Source: Thioclava atlantica
GTDB lineage: Bacteria; Pseudomonadota; Alphaproteobacteria; Rhodobacterales; Rhodobacteraceae
Reading direction: 5' to 3'
Assembly (NCBI RefSeq): GCF_000737065.1
Contig: NZ_AQRC01000012.1
Span: forward strand, 1 to 64,000
Length of the DNA: 64,000 nt
Below the pieces are notes generated by a model. That model worked only from the letters and a program-made list of their open reading frames with translations. It searched no databases and had not been told where the DNA came from. How positions within the stretch are numbered: position 1 is the stretch's first letter; each line of letters opens with the position of its first letter. This document shows positions 1,877 to 64,000 of the stretch, in pieces. A program made the position numbers and the translations under genes.

Positions 1877-4800
1877 TCATCCGTAGGTGGGCTCAAGGAA
1901 AGTTGGGGGCATGTTCTCCAATTGCTCTCGGAGCGAGCTGACCGAAACTTCTGCGCGGCGGTTTTCGGGCACAGCCGCTAAAAGTGCCCCATAACGGTCC
2001 ATTGCCTCTTTTCGTTCGATCTCTGGCAATGAGAGCAGATACTGTCCAACGTCTCCGTTGCGCGCCGCAATCTCCCAGAGCATCTCATTTCTTCGTTCGA
2101 CTAAGCCGGTTGGCATGTCCATGCGTGCACCAACGATCATATCAGTATTTGACACGATCGTCTGGACGAGGTCAAAAAGGTCGCCCTCTCTGATGTAATG
2201 CGAAACGTGTCCTAGCTCGACAGGCATCGATGAATTCTCTTGTTCCTGTAGCTTCACGCACTCTTCGATCGTCTTATATTCAGCTGCCCAGTCCGCCCAG
2301 AGTTCGTCTCGAAAGCTCCGCTCCTGAGAGATCCTGGTTTCGATAACGCCGACAGGCTCGCCTTCACGGCCGGCGTTCAAGAGTTCCATATTCAGCTGTT
2401 GTTCCTTGCGAACGGAGTCGCCAATCTCCAAGATCAAGATGTTCGCGTTCATTACCAGTCCGTTAAGGAATGCGGGCCCTGTCAGTCTGAAACGACACCG
2501 CGAGCATGCCTTGTCGCGATGAACCCCGAAGTAATAGTTCCCCTTTTTCTCTCCGCCGGACGAACACGACGCACCAGGACATATACCATGGCTAAACACA
2601 GAGATGGCGTCTGGGGAGTTTGCCAGCGGGCCGCGCTTGGTGAGTAGCTCTTTGGCCAGCTGCAAACCTTCCCCCGATCCGACTTGTGCGGCGAGCCCGC
2701 CGAACAGCCCGTGGATAATCGAATCGAGTTCCTCTTCGCTCTCCGCTTCAGACAGCGCTCGGGCGGCCTTCACACGTCGTGCTTCGCGTGCGGCGTTGAT
2801 TTCAGCGTGCACCCGTTCAGGACTGTAGGCATGATAGTGTAGAGTCATTACGAGTGATGCGTGACCCAAGAAGTGCTGCACAACAGTAGGCGGCACTCCT
2901 TGATCCAGCAGCGTCGTGGCAACAGCCACCCGAATGCTGTGGATGTCCCAAACAGGGCTTCCTGACTTGTCGAAGAACGTGAGCCTTACCGCGTTCGGCC
3001 CAAGCTCTTTGACCCGCTTCTCATGAACTATATCCTCACATATCTTTAGCAGCTCGCGCCACCAGTAATGTAGAGAATTAGCGGAGATTGGATCTTCACC
3101 AGTTAGCGGGTTCAAGAAGAGAGGGTAAATATATAAATTGTTCGCCTGAAGGCTGGCGGAGGATTTTTCATCTACAGCCGCCACGGGTTCAGAGATTGGG
3201 TTGTGCAGTGATTGTGCGTCAGCGATGTATTCGAGCCTCCCGTGTATGTCATCCGGTAGGAACGGAATCTCAAGCGGTTGATCGTTCTTGGTCTTCAAGA
3301 GGAGTAGAGAGAAAATCTGATTGTCATCAGATATATCCATTATTTGAATGGCTCCAGCACGCCTTCCTTTCGTGGCGCTGATGTTAGTGTTCTGAACGAG
3401 TGCGCGACTCATCTTTTCGACACTAAATTCGTCTCCTTGCCCCGAGTCCATCCATCTGGCGGATGAACTGCGCATGCCAAAATTTAGGATGCAGTCGAGT
3501 GCAGCCGCCGTTGCGGGAATGATTTCCTCGGGTTGCTTTCCGTCAAGCTTAATGAGTGAACGCCCCTTGCTTCCTGACTTCCACCGTCTATACCGGGCAT
3601 ATGGTAATCCGTCATCGTCGGGCTTTGCATTTTCTTCGATTAATGTCTCTACGATCAAAGTTGGAATGGCTTTTCGACCTGTTCCAAATTTTTTGGGTGG
3701 GTTCCTCCAATCCCTTCCGGATTGGATTGGATTTCGATACTCGCCCTTCTGATCGCTTGCCCACAAGTCAAAGAGTTGCTGCAAGCTTCTAAGCGGTTCG
3801 CGAGTTGTAACTCCCCATTGCTCCAGAGCGGCTTTGAATGTAAAAATCCCTTGTTTGGAATGACCGGATATGTGCTCAGACCTAACTACTTCGGCGAAAT
3901 CACGTGGCGGATTTCTAAGCATGAAAATATACATTAACCAAAGTCGGCAGGATCGATAAATTTCATCGAATTTTCGACGTGGTGCGAGTTTAACAAGCCT
4001 GTCAAGATCATGGGCCCAGGATACTATCTCGGGCGGAAATGAGTCAGGGAATTTCTTTCCGGTTTTTTCTTCGAAGTTGCGAACTTGAACTGACATCGCG
4101 ATCTTTATTTTATATGGCTCCTCAGTAAAAAAGGCGAGAGGGGCTTCCATGTATGCTTTTGATTTGCGCTCTTTGAACTTCTGCATCCACTGTCGGGTCG
4201 TGTCTGAGGTTATCCCGTGAAAGTTTGCACATCCGTTCAGATATAACCTGAGGTCGTGCCTTTCTCCCTTCATCACGCCTCTGGTCATATAAAGATATTC
4301 TGGTTCAAATCCAGAACTATCGAAGTATGTCGTCCCACAGAAAATAGAAAAATTGTTAAGTGGAGATACTGATCGACATGCGTGATTTGTTCTAATATAT
4401 TGGTGCGCGTGAAGAAACTCGGATGTCCTCTGACGGGTCATGCGGAGAATAACTGGTCCTCGCATAATTGCCGGATAGAGATTTGACATCGCGCTCCGGG
4501 TATCTGCCATTCTTGATGTTGGCAGAAGTATCTGTCCGTCGTGCGCCAAGTAGTGCAAAATATGTAGTTGAGCACGGCGGATCGCGCTGAACCCAGGCTT
4601 CTTGTTTTGGTCCTTCTCAACCTTGAGAGCGTCTTCAAGTAAATGGTTCAGCGCCGTCGGTATATCAACTCGATCGGATTCCTGCCTTTCAAGGTCTTTG
4701 ATGACCTGATCGAAGTCTATCTCCAGGCTGGCTTCAAGAAACCCAGCTGTGAGCCCGACACGTGTATCGGGTTCAAGAATGTGTTTGGATAGAAAGGAGT

Positions 4801-27000: not shown

Positions 27001-27327
27001 GTCGCTCGTCGCAGTCACGCGGGTGTTACCCTTTGCCTGCTGCGAAACCGCGTCGCGATCAAGCATTCGGGGGCATGCATCGGCATACCGTGCAAATCTG
27101 CCACAGGGCAGCGAGGCGGCCAAGCGGGCAGGGGGGGCGCTGCCCCCTCTTTCCTGACGGAAATTCACCCCCGGGATATTTGGATCAAGAGGAAGGAAGG
27201 GCGCGGGATTTTTCTCGCGCCTTTTGACTGTGCGTTCGCGCCGCGGGGAGGCCGTTTTCGGCGGCGAAGGGGCGGTTTCGGCGATTGGGGCTTGTCAGCG
27301 CGGCGCGCGCTCGGCTATGCGAGTCTG
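27001..27327. other. Intergenic stretch upstream of DUF3422 and gcv operon
   Basis: These 327 bases hold the DUF3422 promoter side, one copy of the palindrome-plus-tail repeat (27129-27200) and, at the right end, the presumed promoter for the glycine riboswitch leader. Short frames run through it but none is gene-like. Confidence 0.5.
27129..27200 (+). repeat. REP-like repeat, copy A
   Basis: The G/C palindrome GGGGGCGCTGCCCCC is followed by a spacer and the tail CCCCCGGGATATTTGGATCA, then AGAGGAAGGA. The 30-base tail is identical to that of the copy at 40011-40077. Related copies lie at 50841-50876 (inverted) and 57893-57955. None is coding. Confidence 0.75.
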
Positions 27328-27510
27328 TGTCGGATACGGGAGAATCCGGGCTCAGCCCCGGTGCCGAAGGAGCAACCGCCCCGGTAAACTCTCAGGCAAA
27401 AGGACCGCATCCGGCAAAGGACTCTGGAGAGAGGCGCCCCGTCGCGAGACGAGCGCGCCCGCCGAAGGGATAACGATCTCAGGCGCCCGCTTGCCGGGCA
27501 GGGACAGAGG
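27328..27510 (+). ncRNA. Tandem glycine riboswitch (gcvT element)
   Basis: Two consecutive aptamers precede gcvT. The first (about 27328-27418) has the glycine-riboswitch start GGATACGGGAGAATCC, then GCCGAAGGAGCAACC and AACTCTCAGGCAAAAGGACC. The second (about 27419-27510) has GGACTCTGGAGAGAGGC, then CGCCGAAGGGATAACGATCT and CAGGC...GGGACAGAGGGG. These are the conserved pieces of the family. Binding of glycine normally switches on the cleavage operon. The control step (translation or transcription) is not obvious; the second aptamer ends about 70 bases before the gcvT start. Confidence 0.95.
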
Positions 27511-27582
27511 GGGCATCGGGCGGGCCGGGATCGGCCCATGGATCGATGCCGGGTCATCCGGCTTTGGAGAGAGAGGGCCGCG

Positions 27583-28686
27583 ATGAGCGATTTGAAACGC
27601 ACGCCGCTATACGATCTGCATGTCGAGCTGGGCGCGAAGATGGTGCCCTTCGCGGGCTACGATATGCCGGTGCAATACCCGCTGGGCGTGATGAAGGAGC
27701 ATCTGCATACCCGCGCGCGGGCCGGGCTCTTCGATGTTTCTCACATGGGGCAGGTGATCTTGCCGGGTGCCGATGCGGCGCGGGCGCTCGAGGCGCTGGT
27801 TCCGGTCAGCCTGCTGGGGCTCAAGGAGGGGCGCCAGCGCTATGCGATGTTCACCAATGATGCGGGCGGCATTCTGGACGACCTGATGGTGGCCAATCGC
27901 GGCGACCATCTGTTCGTCGTGGTGAACGCGGCCTGCAAGGAGGCCGATCTGGCCCATATGCGCGCCCATATCGACGGGGTCGAGGAGATCACCGACCGGG
28001 CGCTGCTGGCGCTGCAGGGGCCGGCGGCCGAGGGCGTGCTCGAGGCGCTCGTGCCGGGTGTGGGGGCGATGCGCTTCATGGATGTCGGCGTCTTCGTGTG
28101 GAACGGCGCGGAGCTCTGGATCTCGCGCTCGGGCTATACCGGCGAGGATGGCTACGAGATTTCCGTGCCCGAGGGCCGGGCGGTCGACTTCGCCCGTGCG
28201 CTTCTGGCCGATGAGGCGGTGGAGCCGATCGGGCTGGGTGCGCGCGACAGCCTGCGCCTCGAGGCCGGGTTGTGCCTGTACGGCCATGACATCGACACCG
28301 CCACCAGCCCGGTCGAGGCGAACCTGGCCTGGGCGATCCAGAAGGTGCGGCGCGCGGGCGGGGAGCGCGAGGGCGGCTTTCCGGGCGCGGATCGGATCCT
28401 GAAGGAACTGGAAGACGGGCCCGTGCGCCTGCGCATGGGGCTGCGCCCCGAGGGTCGCGCACCGATGCGCGAGGGCGTCGAGATCTTCGCCAGCGCCGAG
28501 GGCGGGGAGCCGATCGGCCGCGTCACCTCGGGCGGCTTCGGCCCCTCGATCGAGGCGCCGATGGCGATGGCCTATCTGCCCGCCGACACGGAGGAAGGCA
28601 CCACCGTCTATGGCGAGCTGCGCGGCAAGCGCCTGCCCGCGCAGGTCGTGCCGATGCCCTTCCGCCCCGCCACCTACAAACGCTGA
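27583..28686 (+). CDS. gcvT: Aminomethyltransferase (glycine cleavage T protein)
   Basis: The 367-aa T protein passes the aminomethyl carbon of glycine to tetrahydrofolate. The start MSDLKRTPLYDLHVELGAKMVPFAGYDMPVQY (two contiguous halves) and the segments FDVSHMGQ, GYTGEDGYEISVP and LGARDSLRLEAGLCLYG are diagnostic. GGAGAGAGAGGG precedes the ATG at 27583; the frame's earlier ATG at 27538 would start inside the leader RNA. It is the first gene of the riboswitch-controlled operon, 24 bases before gcvH. Confidence 0.93.
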   Translation: MSDLKRTPLYDLHVELGAKMVPFAGYDMPVQYPLGVMKEHLHTRARAGLFDVSHMGQVILPGADAARALEALVPVSLLGLKEGRQRYAMFTNDAGGILDDLMVANRGDHLFVVVNAACKEADLAHMRAHIDGVEEITDRALLALQGPAAEGVLEALVPGVGAMRFMDVGVFVWNGAELWISRSGYTGEDGYEISVPEGRAVDFARALLADEAVEPIGLGARDSLRLEAGLCLYGHDIDTATSPVEANLAWAIQKVRRAGGEREGGFPGADRILKELEDGPVRLRMGLRPEGRAPMREGVEIFASAEGGEPIGRVTSGGFGPSIEAPMAMAYLPADTEEGTTVYGELRGKRLPAQVVPMPFRPATYKR

Positions 28687-28710
28687 AAAAACAACCGGGA
28701 GACCTGAGAG

Positions 28711-29070
28711 ATGAAATTCACCGAAGATCATGAATGGCTGAAGGCGGAAGGCGATCTGGTGATCGTCGGGATCACCGAGCATGCCTCCGAGCAACTGGGC
28801 GACGTCGTCTTCGTCGAACTGCCCGACGTGGGCGACGAGGTGTCCAAGGGCGACGAGATCTGCGTGATCGAGTCGGTCAAGGCCGCCTCTGACATCCTCG
28901 CGCCGCTCGATGGCGAGATCGTCGCGATCAACGAGGATCTGGCCGACAATCCGGGCCTCGTGAACGAGGATCCGCTGGGCAAGGCCTGGTTCTTCAAGAT
29001 GAAACTCGCCGATCAATCGGCGCTCGAGGGCTTCATGGACGAGGCCGCCTACAAGGACTTCATCGGATAA
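28711..29070 (+). CDS. gcvH: Glycine cleavage system H protein
   Basis: This 119-aa lipoyl carrier shuttles the aminomethyl group between P and T proteins. The lipoylated lysine is K57 in [11 protein letters not shown]. The N-terminus KFTEDHEWL and the segments [19 protein letters not shown] and [15 protein letters not shown] are typical. GGGAGA precedes the start. gcvP follows after 6 bases. Confidence 0.95.
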
Positions 29071-29076
29071 TCAGCC

Positions 29077-31914
29077 ATGTTCACCCCCACGAGCTATGAC
29101 ACCTATGACTTCGCCAATCGCCGCCATATCGGGCCCTCGCCGTCGGAGATGGCAGAGATGCTCAAGGCCGTGGGGGCGCGTGACCTCGACGCGCTGATCG
29201 ACGAGACGGTCCCGAAGAGCATCCGGCAGGAGACGCCGCTGAGCTGGGCGCCGCTGACCGAATACGGGCTGCTGCAGAAGATGGAGGAGGTCGCCAAGAA
29301 GAACCGCGTGATGGTCAGCCTGATCGGGCAGGGCTATTACGGCACGGTCACGCCGCCCGCGATCCAGCGCAACATCCTGGAGAACCCGGCCTGGTATACC
29401 GCCTACACGCCTTATCAGCCCGAGATCGCGCAGGGCCGCCTCGAGGCGCTTCTGAACTTCCAGACCATGGTGTCGGACCTGACGGGGCTGCCGGTGGCGA
29501 ATGCCTCGCTGCTCGACGAGGCGACGGCGGCGGCGGAAGCCATGGCGATGGCGCAGCGCGTCGCGAAATCGAAGGCGACCGCGTTCTTCGTGGATGAGAA
29601 CTGCCACCCGCAGACGATCGGGGTGATCGAGACCCGCGCGCAGCCGCTCGGGATCGAGGTGATCGTGGGCGCGCCGGAGGATCTCGAGGCCGAGAAGGTC
29701 TTCGGCGCGATCTTCCAGTATCCGGGCACCTATGGCCATGTGCGCGACTTCACCGCCCAGTGCGAGGCGCTCCATGCGGCGAAGGCCGTAGCGGTGGTCG
29801 CGACCGATCTGCTGGCGCTGTGCCTGCTCAAGGAGCCGGGCGCGATGGGTGCCGATATCGCCGTGGGCTCGGCGCAGCGCTTCGGCGTGCCGATGGGCTA
29901 TGGCGGCCCGCATGCGGCCTTCATGTCCTGCACCGACGGGATGAAGCGCGCGATGCCGGGTCGTATCGTCGGCGTGTCGATCGACAGCCACGGCAACCGC
30001 GCCTATCGGTTGAGCCTGCAGACCCGCGAACAGCATATCCGCCGCGAGAAGGCGACCTCGAATGTCTGTACCGCGCAGGCGCTTCTGGCGGTGATGGCGA
30101 GCTTCTATGCGGTCTTCCACGGCCCCAAGGGGCTGCGTTCGATCGCGGAGCGGGTGCATTTCACCACCGTGCAGGTGGCCGAGGCGCTGAAAGCGGCAGG
30201 GGCCATCGTCGAACCCGATGCCTTCTTCGACACGATCACCGTGAAGGTGGGCGTGGGCCAGCAAGGCATCCTCGCCGCCGCGCGCCATCGCGGGATCAAC
30301 CTGCGCAAGGTCGGGCGCGACCGGGTCGGGATCTCGATCGACGAGGCCACCGATGCGGCGATCGTGACCCGCCTTCTCGACGCGTTCGGGATCACCGAGG
30401 CGGCGCCCGAGGCCAGCGCACCGGGCGTGCCGGAGGCGCTGTTGCGCGAAAGCGAGTACCTGACCCATCCGGTCTTCCACATGAACCGCGCCGAATCCGA
30501 GATGATGCGCTACATGCGCCGCCTGTCGGATCGCGACCTCGCGCTGGACCGGGCGATGATCCCGCTCGGCTCGTGCACGATGAAGCTCAACGCGGCGGCC
30601 GAGATGATGCCGCTGACCTGGCCGGAATTCGGCTCGCTCCATCCCTTCGTGCCGCTCGATCAGGCGCAGGGCTATCACGAGGCGATCACCGACCTGACCG
30701 GGAAACTGTGCGAGATCACCGGTTATGACGCGTTCTCGATGCAGCCCAATTCGGGCGCGCAGGGCGAATATGCCGGTCTTCTGACCATCGCGGCCTATCA
30801 CCGCGCCAATGGCGACGATCAGCGCGATATCTGCCTCATTCCGATGTCGGCGCACGGGACCAACCCGGCCTCGGCACATATGGCGGGGATGAAGGTCGTG
30901 GTGGTGAATTCCGCCCCCAATGGCGACGTGGATCTCGAGGATTTCGAGGCCAAGGCGCGCGAGGCGGGCGACCGTCTGGCGGCCTGCATGATCACCTATC
31001 CCTCGACGCATGGCGTGTTCGAGGAGACCGTCCGCAAGATCTGCGACATCACCCATGACCATGGCGGCCAGGTCTATCTGGACGGGGCGAACATGAACGC
31101 GCTGGTCGGGCTCGTGAAGCCGGGCGAGATCGGCTCGGATGTGAGCCACCTGAACCTGCACAAGACCTTCGCGATCCCGCATGGTGGCGGCGGCCCGGGC
31201 ATGGGGCCGATCGGGGTGAAGGCGCATCTCGCGCCCTTCCTGCCCGGCCATCCCGAAACCGGCGGCGAGGAAGGCCCGGTCTCGGCCGCGCCCTATGGCT
31301 CGGCCTCGATCCTGCTGATCTCCTGGGCCTATGTCCTGATGATGGGCGGTGAGGGGCTCACCCAGGCGACCCGCGTGGCGATCCTGAACGCGAACTACAT
31401 CGCGGCGCGTCTGAAATCGGCCTATCCGATCCTGTTCATGGGCAATCGCGGCCGGGTGGCGCATGAATGCATCCTCGACACCCGGAAGTTCGCCGAAGTG
31501 GGCGTGACCGTGGACGACATCGCCAAGCGGCTGATCGACAACGGCTTCCACGCGCCGACGATGAGCTGGCCGGTGGCGGGCACGCTGATGGTGGAGCCCA
31601 CCGAATCCGAGACCAAGGCCGAGATCGACCGCTTCATCGCCGCGATGCTGGCGATCCGCGACGAGATCGCCACGGTCGAGGCCGGCGAGATCGCGCCCGA
31701 GGACAGCCCGCTGCGCCATGCGCCGCACACGGTCGAGGATCTGGTGGCGGACTGGGACCGCAAGTACACCCGCGAACAGGGCTGCTTCCCGGCGGGTGCC
31801 TTCCGCGTCGACAAGTACTGGCCGCCGGTCGGGCGGGTCGACAATGTCTATGGCGACCGCAACCTGATCTGCATCTGTCCGCCGGTCGAGAGCTACGCCG
31901 ACGCGGCGGAATAA
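29077..31914 (+). CDS. gcvP: Glycine dehydrogenase (decarboxylating), P protein
   Basis: This 945-aa PLP enzyme decarboxylates glycine and loads the H protein. It is the long one-chain form with both halves (in some bacteria split as GcvPA/GcvPB). The PLP lysine is K696 in [17 protein letters not shown], followed by the glycine-rich loop. The N-terminal half starts [15 protein letters not shown]. It ends the operon and is followed by a terminator. A very long frame on the opposite strand is only a composition shadow. Confidence 0.95.
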
Positions 31915-61411: not shown

Positions 61412-62236
61412 ATGCTCGACGCCACTATCCAGACCAAGACTGCGCCCAAGATGCAGCGTTCGCGTGGAGCCGCGCGGGCGGGATTCGACGGTGCGCGGCT
61501 GGTCGGGCTGCATCAGAGTGGGTCGGCCAAGGCTATCCTGCCCCGCGTCCCGGGCGCGCCCGAAGTGGTTTTTCTCAATACCTCCGGCGGTTTGACCTCG
61601 GGCGACCGGCTTTCCTATGAGACGGATCTCACGGGGGGCGCGCGGCTGGTCGCCACGACCCAGGCCGCCGAGCGCGCCTATCGCGCCGATGACGGACGCG
61701 CCGAGGTGAGCGTGCATCACAGGGTCGGGGCTGGCTGCCATCTCGACTGGCTGCCGCAGGAGACCATCCTCTTCGATCGCGCCAAGCTTTCGCGCGACAC
61801 CGTGATCGAGCTTGCCCCCGACGCGTCCTGCCTGATGCTCGAGGCGGTGGTGCTCGGCCGGATCGCGATGGGCGAGCGGGTCCGCGATCTGCAGTTCCTC
61901 GACATGCGCCGGATCGAGCGCGTCGGCCGCCCCGTCTTCATCGAACCTTTCGCGCTTGGCTCCGAGCTTCTCGCCAAGGGTGCGCGCGGCGCGATCCTCG
62001 GCGAGGCCCGAGCCTTCGCGACGCTGGTGCTCTGCGCACCCGGCGCCGAGGATGCGGTGGACCCGGTGCGCGCGGTGCTCGACGAACCCGGCGTCGAGGG
62101 CGCCGCCTCGGGTTTCGACGGGAAATGCGTGATCCGATTGCTGGCGGAGGAGAGCTGGCCGATGCGCCGCCAGATCCTGCGCCTGATGGAAACCTTGCGG
62201 CGCGGGCAACAAGCCCCGCGCGTCTGGCAGATCTGA
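61412..62236 (+). CDS. ureD: Urease accessory protein UreD
   Basis: This 274-aa protein helps UreF and UreG insert nickel into urease. Family motifs are LPRVPGAPEVVFLNTSGGLTSGDRLSY (two parts), TTQAAERAYRA and WLPQETILFDRAKLSR. GGGAGGGAGGG lies before the ATG. It is the first gene of a urease operon (ureD-ureA-small gene-ureB-ureC) that runs past the window end. Confidence 0.93.
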   Translation: MLDATIQTKTAPKMQRSRGAARAGFDGARLVGLHQSGSAKAILPRVPGAPEVVFLNTSGGLTSGDRLSYETDLTGGARLVATTQAAERAYRADDGRAEVSVHHRVGAGCHLDWLPQETILFDRAKLSRDTVIELAPDASCLMLEAVVLGRIAMGERVRDLQFLDMRRIERVGRPVFIEPFALGSELLAKGARGAILGEARAFATLVLCAPGAEDAVDPVRAVLDEPGVEGAASGFDGKCVIRLLAEESWPMRRQILRLMETLRRGQQAPRVWQI

Positions 62237-62245
62237 GGAAGAAAG

Positions 62246-62548
62246 ATGAACCTGACACCGAGGGAAAAGGACAAGCTGATGATCAGCCTCGCCGCGATGG
62301 TCGCGCGGGGCCGGCTCGAGCGCGGCATGAAGCTCAACCATCCCGAGGCGATCGCGATCATCTCGGATTTCGTGGTCGAGGGCGCGCGCGCGGGCCGTTC
62401 GGTCGCCGATCTGATGGAGGCGGGCGCGGGCGTGATCTCGGCCGATCAATGCATGGAGGGGATCCCCGAGATGATCCATTCGATCCAGGTCGAGGCGACC
62501 TTCCCCGACGGGACCAAACTCGTCACCGTCCACCATCCGATCCGCTGA
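62246..62548 (+). CDS. ureA: Urease gamma subunit
   Basis: The 100-aa subunit has [24 protein letters not shown] at the start, [19 protein letters not shown], and the C-terminal [15 protein letters not shown]. Length and sequence are normal for UreA. AGGAAGAAAG precedes the ATG, 9 bases after ureD. It forms the trimeric urease with UreB and UreC. Confidence 0.95.
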
Positions 62549-62606: not shown

Positions 62607-62786
62607 ATGAAGAAACTCGCCGCTCTCGCCACTCTCGCCCCCTCCGCCGCGCTCGCCCATCCCGGCCACGGCGCGGGGACGACGCTGTTCTTCCATGACG
62701 GCCCGCTCGTCGCCGTGCTCGTGCTCGCAGCGCTCGCCTATGTCGGGCCCGAGCTGGCCCGCGCCCTGCGCCGCAAAAAGGATTGA
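62607..62786 (+). CDS. Small secreted/membrane protein with HupE/UreJ-like start
   Basis: The 59-aa protein has a signal peptide ([17 protein letters not shown]), then mature [15 protein letters not shown], then one hydrophobic segment ([18 protein letters not shown]) and a basic tail (RALRRKKD). HPGHG after the signal is typical of HupE/UreJ nickel permeases, which are about 190 aa; here only this start and one helix remain. The His residues could bind nickel or another metal. It sits inside the urease operon, 4 bases before ureB. Function is inferred from motif and place. Confidence 0.65.
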
Positions 62787-62790
62787 ACCG

Positions 62791-63057
62791 ATGATCCCCG
62801 GAGAGATCCTGCCCGCCGCGGGCGACATCACGCTCAACGAGGGGCTCGAGGCGATCACGCTGATGGTCGCCAATACCGGCGACCGCCCGGTGCAGGTCGG
62901 CTCGCATTACCATTTCGCGGAGACGAATTCCGCGCTCGCCTTCGATCGCGCAGCTGCGCGCGGTTACCGGCTCGATATCGCGGCGGGAACGGCGGTGCGC
63001 TTCGAGCCGGGCCAGAGCCGTGAAGTGCGCCTCGTGCCCTATCGCGGGGGGGCGTGA
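62791..63057 (+). CDS. ureB: Urease beta subunit, C-terminus lost by frameshift
   Basis: The first 80 or so residues are normal UreB ([50 protein letters not shown]). The frame then hits a TGA at 63055 after a run of seven G (63046-63052), giving 88 aa instead of about 101. Reading with one G fewer continues [14 protein letters not shown] and stops at 63095-63097, overlapping the ureC ATG as TGATG. That is the usual UreB end, so a one-base insertion in the G tract is the likely cause: sequencing error, slippage variation or a real mutation. Confidence 0.85.
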
Positions 63058-63096
63058 AGTCTATGGATTCAATCAGAAAGTGATGGGGGCGCTCTG

Positions 63097-64000
63097 ATGC
63101 CGGCTTTGATCCCGCGCAGCACCTATGCCGACATGTTCGGCCCCACGACCGGCGACCGGGTGCGGCTCGCCGATACCGATCTCATCATCGAGGTCGAGCG
63201 CGACCTGACCACCTATGGCGAGGAGGTCAAGTTCGGCGGCGGCAAGGTGATCCGCGACGGGATGGGCCAGAGCCAGATCTCGCGCGCGGGCGGGGCGGTC
63301 GATACCGTCATCACCAATGCGCTGATCGTGGACCATACGGGCATCTACAAGGCGGATGTCGGGCTGAAGGGCGGGGTGATCGTGGCGATCGGCAAGGCGG
63401 GCAATCCCGACACCCAGCCGAATGTCGACATCATCATCGGGCCCGGGACCGAGGCCATTGCGGGGGAAGGGAAAATCCTGACCGCAGGCGGGTTCGACGC
63501 GCATATCCATTTCATCTGCCCGCAGCAGATCGAGGATGCGCTGGCCTCGGGGATCACGACGATGCTGGGCGGCGGCACCGGCCCTGCGCATGGCACGCTG
63601 GCCACGACCTGCACGCCGGGGCCGTGGCATATCGGTCGGATGCTGCAAAGCTTTGACGCCTTCCCGATGAACCTCGCGCTGGCGGGCAAGGGCAATGCCT
63701 CGCGCCCCGAGGCGCTGGTCGAGATGGTCGAAGGGGGCGCCTGCGCGCTGAAGCTGCACGAGGATTGGGGCACCACGCCGGGCGCGATAGATTGCTGCCT
63801 GTCGGTGGCCGACGACATGGACGTGCAGGTTATGATCCATACCGACACGCTCAACGAGAGCGGCTTCGTCGAGAATACGCTCGCCGCGATCAAGGGCCGC
63901 ACGATCCACGCCTTCCATACCGAGGGCGCGGGCGGCGGCCATGCGCCCGATATCCTGAAGGTGGTCAGCGCGCCGAACGTGATCCCGTCCTCGACGAACC
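63097..64000 (+). CDS. ureC: Urease alpha subunit (partial)
   Basis: The first 301 residues of the catalytic subunit are present; the window ends inside the gene. It has [17 protein letters not shown], the nickel ligands in [12 protein letters not shown], the lysine that becomes carbamylated in ALKLHEDWG, and [10 protein letters not shown] and [13 protein letters not shown]. UreC hydrolyses urea at a dinickel centre. Its ATG overlaps the ancestral ureB stop, so its translation may depend on ribosomes finishing ureB in the original frame. Confidence 0.95.

What the first reader, a model, noticed from the sequence alone, without database searches (positions are those of the whole stretch)
63040..63099. 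One-base insertion in a G7 tract truncates UreB and uncouples ureC
With one G fewer the frame continues to [12 protein letters not shown], the normal UreB end, and terminates on the ureC start (TGATG). In the given sequence UreB ends 13 residues early, and 37 bases separate its stop from the ureC stop-start site. The cause could be a sequencing error, a fixed mutation, or reversible slippage acting as an on/off switch for urease.
Basis: partly seen in the sequence, partly recalled or inferred. Interest (0 to 1): 0.68.

Follow-up and report, generated by a model that had tools for sequence, protein, structure and literature searches.

The report
Urease gene with a one-base frameshift
In this marine bacterium's genome sequence a run of seven G's puts the small urease gene ureB out of frame just before its end; it is most likely a recent copying slip (or a sequencing slip) in an otherwise intact urease operon, and nothing seen points to an evolved on/off switch.

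Summary
ureB (62791) runs into a G7 tract (63046-63052), then stops at 63055-63057 after 88 aa. The usual end, [14 protein letters not shown], lies in another frame and meets ureC at TGATG. None of 109 other ureB loci is truncated. The genus is Thioclava, marine bacteria. Its seven closest relatives have a Ser codon (TCG) inside the run; this genome lost it, which left an uninterrupted run. The rest of the operon is intact: the tail is unchanged, UreC has no change at 350 conserved positions, and there is no second ureB. The event is therefore very recent or not real. A census of 28% of the genome found no frame change inside a gene at 4,336 testable runs of 4-8 bases, so the assembly is not error-prone in general; the one testable G10 run, in a portal gene, is also frameshifted. 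If the strain is T. atlantica, as its G+C suggests, the type strain is reported urease-positive. I favour an accidental slip in the sequenced lineage (0.5) over a consensus error (0.37). Uncoupling of ureC is doubtful, because ureC has its own Shine-Dalgarno-like site. A reversible switch is not supported. Low interest.

The parts
61412..62236 (+). ureD-like gene (274 aa), open
   Evidence: inside an open frame, read from ATG 61412; orthologues in G001, G003, G007 and G010, 81-88% identical. No NCBIfam match: named by position and recall.
62246..62548 (+). ureA, urease gamma subunit (100 aa), intact
   Evidence: NF009712 over its cut-off
62607..62786 (+). small ORF (59 aa) between ureA and ureB
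   Evidence: matches in 13 of 15 other genus genomes, two of them weak; the 11 close matches lie next to ureB; dN/dS 0.13-0.36 between G000 and four relatives; a slightly longer reading has no Pfam or NCBIfam match
62791..63057 (+). ureB as it stands: 88 aa, truncated beta subunit
   Evidence: Pfam Urease_beta matched to profile position 84 of 98, against 97 of 98 in a full-length relative
63046..63052 (+). G7 run that puts ureB out of frame
   Evidence: seven genus relatives have GG-N-TCG here; longest run at the site in other genus genomes is four or less; 2 of 109 other loci have six or more, both in frame
63055..63057 (+). premature TGA stop
63053..63097 (+). out-of-frame codons of the normal UreB end ([14 protein letters not shown], then TGA)
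   Evidence: amino acids identical to G001, G003, G006, G007, G010, G013 and G015
63085..63089 (+). GGGGG, likely Shine-Dalgarno site of ureC
   Evidence: duplex energy -8.4 kcal/mol; 5.8% of 500 random 20-mers of the window score as low
63097..64000 (+). ureC, urease alpha subunit (568 aa; continues to 64803 of the contig), intact
   Evidence: NF009686; ORF to 64803; 0 of 350 conserved positions changed

Best explanation
In the lineage of this Thioclava strain the serine codon that breaks up a glycine-rich stretch near the end of ureB was lost, leaving an uninterrupted run of G. Strand slippage then added one base, very recently. UreB now ends 13 residues early, without the last two predicted strands of its fold. 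The rest of the operon is still intact, so this is a fresh, accidental loss (or impairment) of urease, perhaps confined to the sequenced culture, and not an evolved switch. Shown: the sequence, the interrupted run in the closest relatives, the intact operon. Inferred: that the insertion is in the DNA, that slippage made it, and that it harms the enzyme.
For: The seven closest genus relatives have GG-N-TCG-CG (RGSRE) at the site, and no other genus genome has a run longer than four there. All 109 other loci keep the tail. The census of 1.095 Mb of this genome (28%) found no frame change inside a gene at testable runs of 4 (0 of 3558), 5 (0 of 673), 6 (0 of 92), 7 (0 of 11) or 8 (0 of 2), so the assembly is not generally error-prone at such runs. 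The one testable run of 10, in a portal-protein gene, also became uninterrupted by losing a serine codon and is also frameshifted, as slippage at newly made long runs would predict. The tail and UreC are unchanged at conserved sites, which fits a very recent event. No second ureB exists. The tail holds residues conserved in at least 90% of a 35-row alignment (R88, G92, F93, G99, L101) and two predicted strands.
Against: No reads and no second strain were available. The G+C of this genome (65.67 +/- 0.26% over 40 stretches of the larger contigs; 65.11% in a 695-kb sample that includes contig starts) lies nearest, among the seven Thioclava type strains of PMC5508018 Table 3, to T. atlantica (65.3%; the next is 64.1%), which is scored urease-positive there in API 20NE and API 20E. 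If that is the strain, either the insertion is not real or it does not abolish urease. dN/dS gives at most weak support for relaxed constraint: urease ratio 1.87 (1.36-2.55) against controls 1.13 (0.97-1.33) with G007 as third species, but 1.58 (1.20-2.10) against 1.40 (1.17-1.66) with G010. The census scan cannot see a shift this close to a gene's end; ureB itself is not among its events. In four relatives (292 kb) 0 of 21 coding runs of six or more changed frame, against 4 of 81 here, of which three are gene boundaries and one is the portal gene. In both frameshifted runs the relatives' serine codon gave way to G's with a net gain of one base, which could also hint at a local sequence-specific artefact, although GGGTCG is not depleted in this genome.
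Confidence: 0.5

Rival explanations
1. The extra base is an error of sequencing or assembly; the strain's ureB is normal.
For: Tail, UreC and operon show no decay at conserved sites. If the strain is T. atlantica it is urease-positive. The other frameshift found is also in a long G run, the kind of place where consensus calls fail.
Against: No frame change inside a gene at 765 testable runs of 5-6 and 13 of 7-8 bases in 28% of the genome, so the assembly is clean at ordinary runs. The 46 contigs suggest short reads (inference), which rarely miscall seven G (recalled). The identical contig L205 (6,941 of 6,941 bases, portal region only) is probably the same genome and so no independent check.
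Confidence: 0.37
2. The insertion is real but tolerated or bypassed: the truncated UreB still assembles, or slippage of RNA polymerase or ribosome on the G run yields some full-length UreB.
For: Would reconcile an intact operon and a possible urease-positive phenotype. [quoted passage not shown]
Against: Those Blochmannia runs are poly-A or poly-T in an AT-rich genome; this is seven G. All 109 other loci keep the tail, so it is probably needed. I saw no recoding signal on reading the site; none was searched for by a tool.
Confidence: 0.08
3. Reversible slippage at the G run is a selected on/off switch (contingency locus) for urease.
For: A G run inside a coding region near the end of a gene, with the tail kept intact. 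C. [quoted passage not shown]
Against: No other Thioclava genome held has the run. Of 109 other loci only two have a run of six or more there, both in frame. Seven is short for such loci (recalled). mutS and mutL are open. No mixed reads or variant strains could be seen.
Confidence: 0.05

Closest known systems
Urease silencing in Yersinia pestis by one G residue in ureD (Sebbane et al. 2001; paper not held; title seen in the reference list of PMC9248902)
   Same: One G residue decides whether a urease operon that is otherwise kept is active (title; that it is an added G is recalled).
   Different: There it is ureD, with silencing and reactivation reported in the title, and listed among inactivations during adaptation to flea-borne transmission (PMC9248902, passages); here it is the structural gene ureB in a marine bacterium, unverified, with no sign of selection.
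Homopolymer frameshifts in Blochmannia genes (PMC3017870, passages)
   Same: Short indels in homopolymers of genes that otherwise show no decay.
   Different: Poly-A/T in an AT-rich endosymbiont, eight genes in one genome, some shared between species; here one G run in one genome.
Poly-G contingency loci (Campylobacter jejuni; PMC4965091, abstract in listing)
   Same: G run inside a reading frame.
   Different: No evidence here of length variation, of conservation of the run, or of switching.
UreABC operons of the genus and family (loci)
   Same: ureB followed by ureC, with the TGATG overlap in the close relatives; the flanking urease genes have orthologues in four relatives.
   Different: ureB is frameshifted only here among the loci examined.

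Membership tests
Urease beta subunit (Pfam PF00699 / TIGR00192) | Profile match over the curated cut-off | tested here: met
   135.3 bits against a cut-off of 25; TIGR00192 128.5 against 90.3
Urease beta subunit (Pfam PF00699 / TIGR00192) | Full length including the conserved C-terminal tail | tested here: not met
   88 aa, profile positions 1-84 of 98; full-length relative 1-97 of 98
Simple-sequence contingency locus (phase variation) | Run kept among relatives, with lengths in and out of frame | tested here: not met
   no other genus genome has a run above four at the site; 2 of 109 other loci have 6 or 8 G there, in frame
Simple-sequence contingency locus (phase variation) | Length variants within a clonal population | not testable with these tools
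   no reads held
Recent pseudogene | Truncating lesion absent from relatives | tested here: met
   0 of 109 other loci truncated
Recent pseudogene | Relaxed constraint on the gene and operon | tested here: inconclusive
   dN/dS ratio raised with one third species, not clearly with another; UreC 0 of 350 conserved positions changed
Programmed frameshift or transcriptional slippage | Slippery run conserved across relatives | tested here: not met
   relatives need no shift; the run is interrupted in the genus
Assembly artefact | Excess of intragenic frame changes at homopolymers across the genome | tested here: not met
   0 of 4336 testable runs of 4-8 bases in 28% of the genome; 1 of 1 run of 10
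Assembly artefact | Reads disagree with the consensus at the site | not testable with these tools
   no reads held

The most novel reading that the evidence does not exclude
Newly uninterrupted G runs in this Thioclava lineage work as unstable switches: ureB (G7) and a portal gene (G10) flip in and out of frame, so that a culture is a mixture of urease-positive and urease-negative cells, and a positive phenotype of the species and the broken sequence are both true.
Probability: 0.05. Interest if true: 0.45.

Novelty: new member of a known kind. Interest (0 to 1): 0.17.

Why it matters
Little, unless confirmed. It warns that this genome's urease call (broken ureB) may contradict a urease-positive phenotype, and that G runs which lost an interrupting codon are where this assembly or this lineage slips. 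One amplicon would settle it.

Tried and rejected
An error-prone assembly in general: rejected by the census. A first hidden-Markov scan of frame changes was too noisy (199 events in 695 kb, 71 in 292 kb of four relatives, strands treated apart; output partly cut) and was replaced by a run-by-run scan. A site that looked strong in the first scan (L161:6542) is an ordinary gene overlap. In the run-by-run scan the frame changes at runs of 4, 5, 6 and 7 numbered 20, 8, 2 and 1, 1 and 0 (none at 8). I take all of them for gene boundaries: the 31 carry a start codon near the stop in the script's listing, and the 17 were checked, where a start overlaps or closely follows the upstream stop in each (for four of them by reading the printed ATGA or GTGA). 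The count 'no start near' printed is a labelling slip of my script and was not used. Only the run of 10 is inside a gene. Runs within 400 bases of a stretch end, or without strong codon signal on both sides, were not tested; the scan was not calibrated on known frameshifts, apart from finding the run of 10.

A mutator strain: mutS and mutL are open. A backup urea pathway: urea carboxylase is not over its cut-off. A second ureB: none. A systematic miscall of GGGTCG: not depleted in this genome (ratio 1.12 to relatives). Other strains of the species: none reachable; a pattern scan of viral contigs for the ureB site found nothing, and the portal-gene pattern found one contig, identical over 6,941 bases, probably the same genome. 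A first dN/dS table contained control ORFs that are likely spurious and left ureD out of the urease set; one search repeats it with 7 urease genes and 13 hand-picked controls.

Naming the genus: a plasmid of relative G015 is T. electrotropha NZ_CP053563.1, 100% over 12 kb; a contig of G003 (2,098,934 bases) has the same length as the largest N50 in PMC5508018. The species T. atlantica is inferred from G+C, with motility genes in agreement, and is not proven. An earlier count said that L180-L187 all have TCG in the portal run; L184 has TCT, as stated in the full report.

Full report
What is there. The window is the first 64 kb of contig 12 of a 3,925,460-base genome in 46 contigs. Its end holds ureD, ureA, a 59-aa ORF, ureB and the start of ureC; ureC, ureE, ureF and ureG are open beyond it (ureD and ureF are named by position and recall, since neither matched NCBIfam). 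ureB begins at 62791. After ...LVPYRGG it meets G7 (63046-63052), reads one Ala and stops at 63055-63057. The codons for the usual end follow in another frame and end in TGATG with ureC.

Comparison. In 109 other ureB loci from two searches (at least two pairs are the same contig) none is truncated: 107 end at 101-112 aa, and two run past the usual stop but keep the tail. In the seven closest genus relatives the site reads CGC GG-N TCG CGY GAA, that is RGSRE; the other eight genus genomes have other residues there and no run of G above four. Here the serine is gone and the G's run on, with one base more. Two genomes outside the genus have long runs at the same place, six G (L019) and eight G (L063), both in frame. 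G7 runs are fewer in the window than in shuffles (5 against 17.7).

State of the operon. UreC is unchanged at all 350 positions that are at least 90% conserved among 88 sequences (97 of 109 sources gave a UreC match, 88 of them longer than 300 aa). The UreB tail is identical in amino acids to the seven closest relatives. dN/dS of seven urease genes on this branch is 0.183 with G001 and G007 as the others, against 0.082 and 0.113 on their branches; 13 neighbouring control genes give 0.172 against 0.141 and 0.165. With G010 in place of G007 the ratios are 1.58 (urease) and 1.40 (controls) with overlapping intervals. So there is no decay, and relaxed constraint is at most weakly indicated. A real insertion must be very recent.

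Error or mutation. I scanned 1.095 Mb of the same genome (28%) for runs of 4 or more identical bases with strong codon signal for 120 bases on both sides. Same-strand frame changes at runs of 4-7 (48 events, some sharing one boundary; none at 8) were at gene boundaries: 0 intragenic of 3558, 673, 92, 11 and 2 runs of length 4, 5, 6, 7 and 8. The only intragenic change is at the single testable run of 10, in a portal-protein gene (PHROGs portal). Of 12 genus relatives shown for that gene, eight have TCG and two TCT inside the corresponding glycine-serine stretch (TCG in L180-L183, L185-L187, L189; TCT in L184, L190), one has TCG in another context (L188) and one has no serine there (L191); all 12 are open. 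The scan needs 40 codons after the run and so cannot detect ureB itself. The assembly is thus clean at short runs, and both lesions known to me sit at runs that are uninterrupted only in this genome among the genus genomes compared. That is what replication slippage predicts; it is also where a consensus call is most likely to fail.

Phenotype clue. The genus is Thioclava (plasmid of relative G015 identical over 12 kb to T. electrotropha NZ_CP053563.1). The G+C of this genome, 65.67 +/- 0.26% over 40 stretches of the larger contigs (65.11% in the earlier 695-kb sample), is nearest among the seven type strains of PMC5508018 Table 3 (sections 15-17 read) to T. atlantica, 65.3%; the next is 64.1%. 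That strain is listed as motile and as urease-positive in API 20NE and API 20E; flagellin genes are present here. Species described later are not in that table, so the identity is inferred. If right, it speaks for an error, a tolerated truncation, or a change confined to the sequenced culture. The paper scores six of seven type strains urease-positive.

Consequences if real. The lost residues include positions conserved in at least 90% of a 35-row alignment and two strands in an AlphaFold2 model of a full-length relative, at low confidence there (mean pLDDT 61 and 52 in the last two blocks). Of 15 matching PDB sequences, 1a5k_B and 1fwa_B align through residue 101 and the others to residues 96-100. 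Loss of function is likely but untested. Uncoupling of ureC is doubtful: ureC has a good Shine-Dalgarno-like GGGGG at seven bases, and gaps of 38-92 bases between ureB and ureC occur in 7 of the 52 loci (of 109) where the ureC start could be placed.

Known parallels. One G residue in ureD decides urease silencing in Y. pestis (title of Sebbane et al. 2001 seen in the references of PMC9248902; the paper is not held). Homopolymer frameshifts in otherwise intact genes are described in Blochmannia (PMC3017870, passages). I saw no report of a ureB homopolymer frameshift in the listings of four searches (20 of 27 papers listed, 12 of 16, 10 of 21, 3 of 3), which cover only the open-licence library.

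Verdict. A true reading of the sequence. Most likely a recent accidental slip, with a consensus error close behind. No evidence of a switch.

Noticed in passing
L165:5057-5066 (G000 contig 2, about 205057): A portal-protein gene beside a terminase-like gene (gene-transfer-agent-like by recall) carries an out-of-frame G10 run where most genus relatives have a serine codon inside the stretch; the same kind of change as in ureB.
   Followed up: partly
63250-63537, minus strand: Rfam 5_ureB_sRNA (RF02514) matches antisense to ureC at 89.6 bits; the ureC region of three relatives, 3 of 3 loci given, matches too, so the hit may only reflect coding conservation of the alpha subunit.
   Followed up: partly
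62607-62786, plus strand: Small ORF with a signal-like start and an HPGHG motif between ureA and ureB, matched in 13 of 15 other genus genomes, two of them weakly; a slightly longer reading has no Pfam or NCBIfam family.
   Followed up: partly
L112:4809-5204, minus strand (contig 64808-65203): 131-aa ORF antisense between ureC and ureE, with coding-like third-position G+C; no family and no match in the stretches held of four relatives.
   Followed up: no
27327-27417, plus strand: Glycine riboswitch aptamer (RF00504), upstream of genes at 27538-31914 that look like glycine cleavage genes (by recall).
   Followed up: no
L063 (MAG ZodW_maxbin.058), ureB site: Eight G in frame at the same place in ureB: a natural long run that keeps the frame.
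   Followed up: no
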